From the NCBI GenBank assembly GCA_002632325.1, contig NSJK01000006.1, positions 1-64,000 of the forward strand: a stretch of DNA of 64,000 bases, read 5' to 3'. Under the pieces are notes generated by a model. The model searched no databases. It was not told where the DNA came from and saw nothing but the letters and a program-made list of their open reading frames with translations. Source of the DNA: Lysobacterales bacterium. Its GTDB lineage: Bacteria > Pseudomonadota > Gammaproteobacteria > Xanthomonadales > Rhodanobacteraceae. This document shows positions 12,419-19,947 of this stretch, one piece after another. A program made the position numbers and the translations under genes. Positions within the stretch are counted from its first letter, which is position 1; each line of letters starts with the position of its first letter.

Positions 12419-14659
12419 TCAAGCCGTGGTTTCGATGCGCTCCACGCGTTGCAGCCCGCGCGGCAGCAATGAACCGCGCGCGGCGCGGTGGCCGCCGTAT
12501 TCGACCAGATCACCCCAGCGCAGCGTGAGCTTGCGCTGGCCGGCATGCAAGGTGACTTCGCCGCTGCCTTCGGCCACCACGGCAATGCCGGTCACGCGCT
12601 CGCCACCGCTGAGCTTGGCCTTGGGAATCTCGATCAACTTGTTGCCCTTGCCGCCCTTGTCGAGTTCGGGCAGTTCGGCGACCGAGAACATCAACAAGTG
12701 CCCGGCGCTGGTGACCACGACGATGCGATCGCGTGCGCTGTCGGCCACCATCGCGGGCGCCAATACGTGCGCGCGTTCGTCGAGGCTGATGACCTGCTTG
12801 CCGGCCTTCTTGTTGGCGAGCAGGGTCTCGAATGAGGTGACGAAGCCGTAGCCGAAGTCACTGGCGATGACGAGCTTGCTGCTCGCCTCGCCGAGCGCGA
12901 GCGCTTCGAATTGCGCGCCCGCAGGCAAGCTGAAGCGGCCGGTGAGCGGCTCGCCATTGCCGCGCGCCGAGGGCAGGGTGTGTGCGGGCGCGCTGTAGCT
13001 GCGCCCACTCGAATCGATGAAGGCGACTGCCTGGGTAGTGCGGCCACGTGCGCTGGCCAGATAGCCATCGCCTTCGCGATAGCCCAGTTCACGGGCATCG
13101 ACGTCGTGTCCCTTGGCTGCGCGCACCCAACCCTTGGTCGAGAGGATCACGGTGATCGGTTCGCTGGCAACGAGCGCGGTTTCGTCGAGCGCCTGCGCGG
13201 CGGCGCGTGCGACCAGCGGCGAGCGGCGCGCGTCGCCGAACTTCTCGGCATCCTTGCGCAGTTCGTCCTTGAGCAAGGTCTTCAATCGCGCCTTGGAGCC
13301 AAGGATCACGTTGATCCGCGCACGCTCTTCTTCGAGTTCGTCGCGCTCCGCGTTGATCTTCATTTCCTCGAGTCGCGCGAGCTGGCGCAGGCGCGTTTCG
13401 AGAATGTAGTCGGTTTGCATTTCGCTCAGGCCGAAACGCGCCATCAACACCGGCTTGGGCTCGTCCTCGCTGCGCACGATGCGAATGACTTCATCGAGGT
13501 TGAGGAAGGCGATGCGCAGCCCTTCGAGCAGGTGCAGACGGCGTTCGACCTTGTCGAGACGATGCTGCAAGCGGCGCGTCACCGTGTCGGCACGAAAGCG
13601 CAGCCACTCGCTGAGGATCTGCTTGAGGTTCTTGACCTGCGGCTTGCCGTCGAGGCCGATCATGTTGAGATTGACTCGGTAACTCTTCTCCAGATCGGTG
13701 GTGGCGTTGAGATGCTGCATCATCTCGTCGAGATCGATGCGACTCGTGCGCGGAATCAGCACGATGCGGATCGGGTTCTCGTGATCGGACTCGTCGCGGA
13801 TGTCCTCGATCATCGGCAGCTTCTTGGCGCGCATCTGCGCCGCGATCTGCTCGAGGATCTTCGAAGGCGAAACCTGCCACGGCAACGCGGTGACGACGAC
13901 ATTGCCATCTTCCTTGCGCCACACCGCGCGGCAACGCACCGAGCCGATGCCGGTCGCGTACATTGCCGCCAATTCATTGGCCGGGGTGATGATTTCGGCT
14001 GCGGTGGGGAAATCCGGGCCTTTCACGTGCTCGCCGAGATCGGCAATGCTCGCCTCGGGCTCATCGAGCAGTCGAATGCAGGCACTGGCGACCTCGCGCA
14101 GGTTGTGCGGCGGAATGTCGGTGGCCATGCCGACCGCGATCCCGGTCGAGCCGTTGAGCAGCACGTGCGGCACACGCGCGGGCAGCCACGAAGGCTCCTT
14201 GAGCGTGCCGTCGAAGTTCGGCACCCACTCGACCGTGCCCTGACCAAGCTCGTCGAGCAGGAGCTGGGCCATCGGCGTGAGGCGCGATTCGGTGTAGCGC
14301 ATCGCTGCGAACGACTTGGGATCGTCCTGGGAGCCGAAATTGCCCTGGCCATCGATCAGCGGATAGCGATACGAAAATGGCTGCGCCATCAGCACCATCG
14401 CCTCGTAGCAGGCGCTGTCACCGTGCGGGTGGAACTTGCCGATCACATCGCCCACGGTGCGCGCGGATTTCTTCGGCTTGGACGTGGCGTCGAGCCCGAG
14501 CTCGCTCATCGAGTAGACGATGCGTCGCTGCACGGGTTTGAGGCCGTCACCGACGAAGGGCAGGGCGCGATCGAGCACCACATACATCGAATAGTCGAGA
14601 TAGGCGCGCTCGGCGTAATCCTTGAGCGGGATCTGTTCGTGATTGGTCTGCAGGTTCAT
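12419..14659 (-). CDS. parC: DNA topoisomerase IV subunit A
   Basis: This encodes 746 residues. With ParE it would form topoisomerase IV, which decatenates daughter chromosomes. The N-terminal breakage-reunion domain carries the quinolone-region motif [12 protein letters not shown], with the Ser and Glu positions intact, and the catalytic Tyr in [11 protein letters not shown] coiled-coil segment and a C-terminal beta-propeller domain (repeated TKGW/GYG-type strands) follow. ATG 14659 ([12 protein letters not shown]) is chosen because the homology starts there, although the frame is open to 14725. ParC rather than GyrA is inferred from the length and the short, GyrA-box-poor tail. ParE is not in the window. 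Confidence 0.95.
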
Positions 14660-15250: not shown

Positions 15251-15290
15251 CTCGCACCCTTGGACTCTACGCGGTAGCCGGTGGCCCTAG

Positions 15291-15452
15291 CAGGGTGCTG
15301 AAAAAGTCCATCCTGGACTTCTTCAGCTCGACGAGTCCGGTACATGCCCGGACTCGTCTCCGACGAATCAATCACTTGCGTGATCGATTCGCATGCAGTG
15401 CATCCCTGCACTGCGCTATCAGACTGCTGAAAAGGGTTTTTCAGCAGTCTGA
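15291..15452. repeat. Structured ~161-bp repeat, copy 1
   Basis: It starts cagggtgctgaaaaa and ends ttttcagcagtctg, so the ends are near-inverted repeats. Inside are five consecutive inverted repeats, including a perfect 11-bp stem (gacgagtccgg / ccggactcgtc) and a terminal perfect 14-bp stem. The element looks like a miniature mobile or REP-type intergenic element. Confidence 0.85.
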
Positions 15453-15534
15453 TAGGAAATGGGGCAGGTCACGTCGGCACGCCTGCGCGGGGTCGGTGCT
15501 GTCGGGTTTGCCCGCGAATTGCGTTTCCCTTTAA

Positions 15535-15695
15535 CAGGGTGCTGAAAAAGTCCATCCTGGACTTCTTCAGCTCGACGAGTCCGGTACATGCCCGGACTCG
15601 TCTCCGACGAATCAATCACTTGCGTGATCGATTCGAGTGCAGTGCATCCCTGCGCTGCGCTATCAGGCTGCTGAAAAGGGTTTTTCAGCAGCCTG
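15535..15695. repeat. Structured ~161-bp repeat, copy 2
   Basis: It has the same orientation and internal layout as copy 1, with a few substitutions. In the terminal 14-bp stem an A-T pair of copy 1 is G-C here, so pairing is kept. The third and fourth stems also remain pairable, the latter through a G-T pair. Confidence 0.85.
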
Positions 15696-15699
15696 CAAA

Positions 15700-15860
15700 C
15701 AGGGTGCTGAAAAAGTCCATCCCGGACTTCTTCAGCTCGACGAGTCCGGTACATGCCCGGACTCGTCTCCGACGAATCAATCACTTGCGTGATCGATTCG
15801 AGTGCAGTGCATCCCTGCACTGCGCTATCAGGCTGCTGAAAAGGGTTTTTCAGCAGCCTG
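15700..15860. repeat. Structured ~161-bp repeat, copy 3
   Basis: It begins four bases after copy 2 and is nearly identical to it. It differs, for example, in one base of the first stem (atcctgg becomes atcccgg). Copies 2 and 3 form a direct tandem pair. Confidence 0.85.
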
Positions 15861-19734: not shown

Positions 19735-19812
19735 CGCACTCCTCGTCTGGTCGAGGCTGCGGAACCGGCGGGTGCGAGGCACGACACCTGACCGATTCCG
19801 TTGCCGGAAATC

Positions 19813-19864
19813 GTGGTCAGGCATCATCAGCCCTGCGGCGGTTCGCGGAGGATGCCATCTCCGT
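19813..19864 (-). promoter_or_regulatory. Fluoride riboswitch (crcB motif)
   Basis: Read on the minus strand, the sequence has GGAGATGGCATCCTCC, then AACCGCC, then GGGCTGATGATGCCT. This matches the crcB RNA consensus: a P1 stem (GGAG/CTCC), the conserved AACCGCC and CTGATG blocks, and a pseudoknot GGCATC with GATGCC. A partly palindromic stretch between it and crcB could be the expression platform. Fluoride binding would turn on crcB and whatever is co-transcribed. Confidence 0.9.
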
Positions 19865-19947
19865 CGCGCCATGATGCCAGCGGCGCGGCGTCATGCCAAT
19901 CGGGCGGCATGCTACATTCATCGGCCGTTTCGTGACCGGAGCTGCGC

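What the first reader, a model, noticed from the sequence alone, without database searches (positions are those of the whole stretch)
15291..15860. Three copies of a ~161-bp element made of five back-to-back hairpins
Each copy has near-inverted ends (CAGG.TGCTGAAAAA) and five consecutive inverted repeats that fill almost its whole length. Differences between copies keep pairing: an A-T to G-C change in the terminal 14-bp stem, and a G-T pair in the fourth stem of copy 2. That suggests selection on structure, as in a MITE with folded DNA, a REP-like element or a structured RNA.
Basis: seen in the sequence. Interest (0 to 1): 0.6.

Follow-up and report, generated by a model that had tools for sequence, protein, structure and literature searches.

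The report
Mobile repeat carrying CsrA-binding RNA hairpins
A small jumping DNA element, about 45 copies in this Dokdonella-type genome and found across several bacterial lineages, encodes a conserved multi-hairpin RNA whose loops match the binding site of the global regulator CsrA/RsmA, so it may be a mobile source of binding sites for that regulator.

Summary
In detail: three 161-bp copies (15291-15451, 15535-15695, 15700-15860). The genome holds about 45 (40 full-length, all intergenic), with 15-bp inverted ends and 4-bp YTAR target duplications; an empty site in a relative confirms insertion. It is a MITE. In two carrier genomes a resident IS5-family element has matching ends (20/20 and 16/20 bases). 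The internal hairpins are ancient: the same plan occurs in 30 of 77 genera sampled in the order and in another class, with turned-over, covarying stems (covariation 0.64 versus 0.20 shuffled) and conserved loops. G.U over A.C asymmetry points to the minus strand as the folded RNA. Two loops are C-ANGGAX-G and C-AGGAX-G, the published A(N)GGAX site of CsrA/RsmA (GGA in 57/60 sequences at each). In one other-class family all 20 near-complete carriers have csrA, and all six near-complete genomes without csrA lack the element. My reading: an IS5-mobilised MITE whose transcript carries paired CsrA/RsmA sites. Mobility is well supported; CsrA binding is strongly suggested but untested; physiological effect is inferred. 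No Rfam family reaches its threshold; the nearest are TD-2 (Treponema) and gyrA RNA.

The parts
15291..15451 (-). element copy 1 (161 bp); minus strand is the inferred RNA strand; flanks CTAG / ATAG
   Evidence: R2 117.6 bits
15535..15695 (-). element copy 2 (161 bp); flanks TTAA / CAAA
   Evidence: R2 113.2 bits
15700..15860 (-). element copy 3 (161 bp), 4 bp from copy 2; flanks CAAA / TCAA
   Evidence: R2 115.4 bits
15535..15549 (+). copy 2, terminal inverted repeat (CAGGGTGCTGAAAAA)
15681..15695 (-). copy 2, other terminal inverted repeat (CAGGCTGCTGAAAAA on minus)
15664..15695 (-). copy 2, hairpin HP5: palindrome of the terminal repeat, 14-bp stem, loop ACCC
15639..15658 (-). copy 2, hairpin HP4
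15645..15652 (-). copy 2, HP4 loop with closing pair CAGGGATG, CsrA/RsmA-type hexaloop C-ANGGAX-G
15608..15635 (-). copy 2, hairpin HP3, loop GCAA on minus; a G.U pair recurs in this stem across genomes
15574..15602 (-). copy 2, hairpin HP2, 11-bp stem, 7-nt loop GCATGTA on minus
15541..15571 (-). copy 2, hairpin HP1, 14-bp stem
15553..15559 (-). copy 2, HP1 loop with closing pair CAGGATG, CsrA/RsmA-type pentaloop C-AGGAX-G
15287..15290 (.). 4-bp flank CTAG left of copy 1, paired with ATAG at 15452-15455 (target-site duplication differing at one base)

Best explanation
[quoted passage not shown] Its 125-nt core, transcribed from the minus strand by read-through from neighbouring genes, folds into a series of rigid hairpins. 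Hairpins HP4 and HP1 display A(N)GGAX loops on C-G-closed stems, so each transcript is expected to bind CsrA/RsmA at two sites. Many dispersed copies would then act as a distributed CsrA/RsmA decoy, and would place single neighbouring transcripts under CsrA/RsmA control. SHOWN by sequence: dispersal, ends, target duplication, empty site, covarying structure, loop conservation, matching IS5 ends in two relatives, co-occurrence with csrA. INFERRED: transposition in trans, transcription, CsrA/RsmA binding, any effect on the cell.
For: Mobility: 46 core sites, 40 full copies. Flanking 4-mers YTAR; left and right resemble each other far more than shuffled pairs (mean mismatch 1.08 vs 2.00, 0 of 5000). 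One copy is missing in relative G004, with a single 4-mer at the empty site. G039 has 13 intact copies of a 1.22-kb IS5-family IS (NF033581, 325 bits) with ends GGAGGGTCTGAACAAGTCC and YTAR flanks, and its elements begin with the same 20 bases; G047's different IS5 has different ends, matched 16/20 by G047's elements. Structure: 61 cores from about 50 genomes: 94.3% of cells paired vs 70.7% shuffled and 31-49% slid; 33 of 36 pairs change on both sides; covariation 0.644 vs 0.196. Strand: G.U 81 vs A.C 39, p 1.6e-4. CsrA site: HP4 loop CANGGANG in 50/60, HP1 CAGGANG in 40/60 plus CANGGANG in 7; GGA in 57/60 each. RsmZ stem-loops bound by RsmE have A(N)GGAX on a C-G-closed stem, with N absent in SL3/SL4 (PMC4005645). 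Even among the young own copies these two loops carry 6 changes where 18 are expected. Co-occurrence: 61/61 carriers tested have csrA. In family f49, near-complete carriers 20/20 csrA+, non-carriers 10/16; by genus 10/10 vs 0/4.
Against: No expression or binding data. No orientation bias: 21 of 40 copies have the minus strand sense with the upstream gene, 19 antisense; in tandem gene pairs 11 antisense vs 5 sense, so no general selection for read-through transcription. No conserved internal promoter was established. Inside the Gammaproteobacteria csrA is nearly universal, so co-occurrence there says nothing (18 of 19 non-carriers also have it). The f49 association may rest on one or a few losses of csrA and is not phylogenetically corrected; two incomplete f49 carriers (74% and 69%) lack a detected csrA. 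HP1's pentaloop is the weaker form of the site. HP3 and HP2 are also conserved across genomes and not explained by CsrA. No intact partner IS was found in the own draft genome.
Confidence: 0.68

Rival explanations
1. The hairpins act as folded single-stranded or cruciform DNA needed for transposition (recognised by transposase or a host factor) and the RNA is irrelevant.
For: The outer hairpins HP5 and HP1 contain the terminal repeats, and folding as DNA is equally extreme (z -12.3). The palindromic ends vary with the IS ends.
Against: Another MITE in the own genome with the same ends has none of the internal hairpins yet also sits at GTAG/ATAG-type sites (L176, L177). G.U over A.C asymmetry favours one strand. 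Loop variation follows a known RNA-binding consensus. Dependence on csrA presence is not expected.
Confidence: 0.13
2. The core is a structured RNA bound by something other than CsrA/RsmA (for example a ribonuclease or unknown protein), or acts only as a stable 3' UTR / terminator-like structure.
For: HP2 and HP3 loops are conserved too. At least 13 of 40 copies lie within 60 nt downstream of a sense gene's stop codon.
Against: A pure stability role needs no conserved GGA loops; loop length changes exactly as the CsrA site tolerates (AGGAX and ANGGAX interchange).
Confidence: 0.13
3. A neutral MITE: pairing is kept by template switching between arms of the inverted repeats, with no function.
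For: Own copies are young, with many one-sided changes that break pairs (67 of 115). No orientation bias.
Against: Template switching would not preserve loop sequences across classes while the stems turn over, nor give fewer changes in the GGA loops than elsewhere within one genome.
Confidence: 0.04
4. A cis-regulatory RNA of type II topoisomerase genes (gyrA RNA-like): the window copies lie upstream of a parC-like gene on the same strand.
For: Rfam gyrA RNA matches HP2-HP1 at 32.7 bits, E 8.6e-7; the parC-like gene is the minus-strand gene at 12419-14659.
Against: Below the family's gathering score of 45; the gyrA RNA consensus has AAGA, not GGA, in that loop. The other 37 full copies are dispersed over the genome.
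Confidence: 0.02

Closest known systems
MITEs of IS5-family insertion sequences (YTAR target)
   Same: Short, non-coding, terminal inverted repeats, 4-bp YTAR duplication, ends equal to a resident IS5's ends in two relatives.
   Different: The interior is not a shrunken IS: it is an ancient, covarying multi-hairpin RNA module kept across classes while the ends change with the local IS.
CsrB/RsmZ-type CsrA/RsmA-sequestering sRNAs
   Same: Hairpins with A(N)GGAX loops directly on C-G-closed stems (PMC4005645).
   Different: Not a single-copy, regulated sRNA gene: two sites per unit, dispersed by transposition, no established promoter. Such sRNAs had no homologue in Xanthomonas (PMC7694677).
TD-2 RNA (Rfam RF03162, clan CL00124; Treponema denticola, from memory)
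   Same: HP4-like CAUGGAUG and HP1-like CACGGAUG hairpins in the same order with an HP2-like hairpin between; G039 tandem copies score 43.1 bits, E 0.003.
   Different: Below the gathering score of 48.7; HP3 has no hairpin counterpart in the model; mobility of TD-2 was not examined here.
gyrA RNA (Rfam RF01740, Pseudomonas; PMC2864571)
   Same: HP2-HP1 geometry, 32.7 bits.
   Different: Below the gathering score of 45; no GGA loop; a gene-linked motif.
RsmU, 3' UTR-derived RsmA-binding sRNA of Xanthomonas campestris (PMC7694677)
   Same: RNA from the 3' end of an mRNA binding RsmA, as proposed for copies just after stop codons.
   Different: Restricted to Xanthomonas, single locus, no described mobility.
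REP/BIME elements with RAYT transposases
   Same: Many dispersed intergenic palindromes.
   Different: Here 161 bp with five hairpins, paired inverted ends and a true 4-bp target duplication.

Membership tests
MITE (IS5-type) | terminal inverted repeats | tested here: met
   15 bp, 14 identical
MITE (IS5-type) | 4-bp YTAR target-site duplication | tested here: met
   empty site
MITE (IS5-type) | no transposase gene, many copies | tested here: met
   161 bp, about 45 copies
MITE (IS5-type) | ends shared with an autonomous IS | tested here: inconclusive
   met in relatives G039 and G047; no such IS found in the own draft genome
MITE (IS5-type) | transposition in trans demonstrated | not testable with these tools
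   needs a laboratory transposition assay
CsrA/RsmA-binding RNA | A(N)GGAX loops on C-G-closed stems | tested here: met
   HP4 50/60 and HP1 47/60 strict matches; consensus PMC4005645
CsrA/RsmA-binding RNA | host encodes CsrA/RsmA | tested here: met
   61/61 carriers; 33/35 carriers in f49, the two exceptions 69-74% complete
CsrA/RsmA-binding RNA | binds CsrA/RsmA | not testable with these tools
   no binding assay available
CsrA/RsmA-binding RNA | is transcribed | not testable with these tools
   no RNA-seq held
TD-2 RNA (RF03162) | reaches Rfam gathering score | tested here: not met
   43.1 of 48.7 bits at best; no hit in 20 further loci
gyrA RNA (RF01740) | reaches Rfam gathering score | tested here: not met
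   32.7 of 45 bits
REP element | short (20-40 bp) tagged palindrome without target duplication | tested here: not met
   161 bp, YTAR duplication

The most novel reading that the evidence does not exclude
A lineage-spanning family of transposable elements has kept, through selection on itself or on its hosts, a CsrA/RsmA-binding RNA module while swapping terminal repeats to match whatever IS5 is resident: a mobile CsrA sponge that spreads CsrA-binding sites through genomes and persists only where CsrA exists. Treponema TD-2 RNAs would be members.
Probability: 0.45. Interest if true: 0.88.

Novelty: new variant of a known kind. Interest (0 to 1): 0.76.

Why it matters
MITEs are usually treated as debris of insertion sequences. 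Here the interior is far better conserved in structure than the ends and looks built for one global regulator. If right, transposition supplies CsrA/RsmA with binding sites genome-wide, giving a route by which post-transcriptional regulons are rewired, and a possible source of RsmA-sequestering RNAs in a group where CsrB/RsmZ homology searches found none (Xanthomonas, PMC7694677). It would also offer a common explanation for the candidate RNA TD-2, whose function I did not find described in the papers searched. The csrA co-occurrence and the GGA-dependence are directly testable.

Tried and rejected
REP/RAYT origin: rejected on the 4-bp duplication and paired ends. gyrA-type cis-regulation of the neighbouring topoisomerase gene: rejected on dispersal. 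Orientation selection: tested with a home-made gene caller, no bias (a first version was poor and discarded; the second gives 82% coding in the window). Enrichment between convergent genes: 16 of 38 sites vs 7 of 29 gaps in the window, p 0.19, not significant. Plasmids and phages: no match to the element by blastn, nor the second MITE in plasmids. Own-genome IS with matching ends: the only PF01609 hit is a partial gene near a contig end without the terminal repeat. Literature: no paper linking MITEs with CsrA/RsmA binding was found in 10 searches of an open-access library (between), which is not proof of absence.

Full report
OBSERVATION. The window holds three copies of a 161-bp element at 15291-15451, 15535-15695 and 15700-15860, 96-100% identical, with inverted ends and five consecutive hairpins. 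Copies 2 and 3 are 4 bp apart. The fold is extreme on either strand and in either chemistry (z about -12).

COPIES AND ENDS. The own draft genome (3.36 Mb, 47 contigs) has about 45 copies, 40 of them full length, within 0.6-7.5% of their consensus. Its genus holds a named Dokdonella MAG: G004 contig C5 has the length of NZ_JAHCAP010000013.1, and copies there are 95-96% identical. Ends are CAGGGTGCTGAAAAA / TTTTTCAGCAGCCTG. The flanking 4-mers are YTAR-like (CTAA, CTAG, TTAG, ATAG) and the two sides of one copy resemble each other far more than shuffled sides: mean mismatch 1.08 vs 2.00, never reached in 5000 shuffles; 12 of 40 identical vs 2.5 expected. In G004 one copy is absent: the filled site reads ACG-CTGG-[161 bp]-CCAG-GCG, the empty site ACG-CGGG-GCG, one 4-mer instead of two. 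The site is the loop of a terminator-like hairpin. All 40 full copies lie between genes by a home-made gene caller.

WHAT MOVES IT. In G039 (another family of the order) a 1.22-kb IS with a 342-aa IS5-family transposase (PF01609 94 bits; NF033581 325 bits, cut-off 140) has 13 intact copies, ends GGAGGGTCTGAACAAGTCC and YTAR flanks; G039's elements begin with the same 20 bases. In G047 a different IS5 (364 aa, NF033581 261 bits) has different ends, matched 16/20 by G047's elements and only 9/19 by G039's. So the ends follow the resident IS while the core stays. In the own genome no such IS was found, but a second, unrelated MITE of about 150 bp carries the same 15-bp ends (L176, L177), a sign that an IS with these ends is or was active.

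THE CORE IS OLD AND STRUCTURED. BLAST of relatives returned elements with different stems but the same loops. A covariance model from eight of them (R1) finds the core in 50 of 250 genomes and 30 of 77 genera of the order and in 43 of 398 genomes across the phylum, mostly one family of another class, f49. Members include Rhodanobacter sp. B05, a Dokdonella MAG, a Halothiobacillus MAG and a MAG labelled Xanthomonas. Carriers usually show YTAR-type repeats at the element's edges. On 60 distinct cores 94.3% of pair cells are standard pairs (shuffled 70.7%, slid partners 31-49%), 33 of 36 pairs have changes on both sides, and covariation is 0.644 against 0.196 shuffled and at most 0.148 slid. The alignment was fitted to the model, which favours the structure, but the gap is very large. 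G.U pairs outnumber A.C 81 to 39 on the minus strand, so the minus strand is most likely the one that folds as RNA.

THE LOOPS. Minus-strand HP4 is C-ANGGAX-G in 50 of 60 cores and HP1 is C-AGGAX-G in 40 and C-ANGGAX-G in 7; GGA is present in 57 of 60 at each. The C-G pair closing HP1 is invariant in 60 of 60, and that closing HP4 is C-G in 58. Structures of RsmE with RsmZ define the site as A(N)GGAX in a loop on a C-G-closed stem, N optional, hexaloop strongest (PMC4005645). Within the own genome, where copies differ little, these two loops carry 6 changes against 18 expected at the element's average rate (p 0.001). The HP3 loop is not protected in this way.

CO-OCCURRENCE WITH csrA. All 61 carriers tested have PF02599, but so do 18 of 19 non-carriers there. 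Outside the class the test has power: carriers 19/19, non-carriers 37/69. Within f49, using R2 and PF02599 on the same 74 genomes: near-complete carriers 20/20, non-carriers 10/16, p 0.004; genera with the element 10/10 have csrA, genera without it 0/4. Two carriers without a detected csrA are 69% and 74% complete and have congeners with it. Shared ancestry is not corrected for, and the model itself includes the loops, so elements that had lost GGA would score lower.

FUNCTION. I commit to: IS5-mobilised MITE whose transcripts carry paired CsrA/RsmA sites, acting as decoys or as local control sites. Of 40 copies 21 have the minus strand sense with the upstream gene, and at least 13 of these lie within 60 nt of its stop codon, a position where read-through would make a 3' UTR RNA comparable to RsmU of Xanthomonas (PMC7694677). 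There is no orientation bias overall, so I do not claim that each copy is used. Why a MITE should keep the sites is open: benefit to the host as a sponge, or to the element by damping the harm of read-through transcripts.

RELATION TO KNOWN FAMILIES. No Rfam family reaches its gathering score over the element in the window or over the related elements in 35 loci scanned. Nearest are TD-2 RNA (43.1 of 48.7 bits on G039 tandem copies), whose consensus contains CAUGGAUG and CACGGAUG hairpins at the HP4 and HP1 places, and gyrA RNA (32.7 of 45 bits). I regard TD-2 as a probable relative but did not test its mobility.

Noticed in passing
own copies, flanks: The base two positions outside each end departs from the far duplicate in a directed way: left -2 is G in 12 of 40 where the right copy keeps A; right +2 is C in 17 of 40 where the left copy mostly keeps T. 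Ordinary mutation does not explain this; carried-over donor bases or repair at insertion might.
   Followed up: partly
L176:1070-1225, L177:1283-1435 (own contigs C9, C32): A second MITE of about 150 bp with identical 15-bp ends but no hairpin core, flanked by GTAG/ATAG-type 4-mers.
   Followed up: partly
L103:1129-1775 (G039): Five head-to-tail 130-bp copies of a core lacking HP5, the best TD-2 RNA matches.
   Followed up: partly
window 19811-19871 (-): Fluoride riboswitch (RF01734, 46.7 bits) at the start of a crcB-like gene on the minus strand.
   Followed up: no
G388: A gammaproteobacterial carrier genome with nine CsrA homologues.
   Followed up: no
own copies: Several insertions sit at or within a few bases of a stop codon; the YTAR target contains TAA/TAG, so the gene's stop can be kept.
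   Followed up: no
L002:1480-1769 (own contig C37): Two copies fused head to tail, sharing the junction and lacking the first copy's full HP5, like a dimer made by recombination.
   Followed up: no
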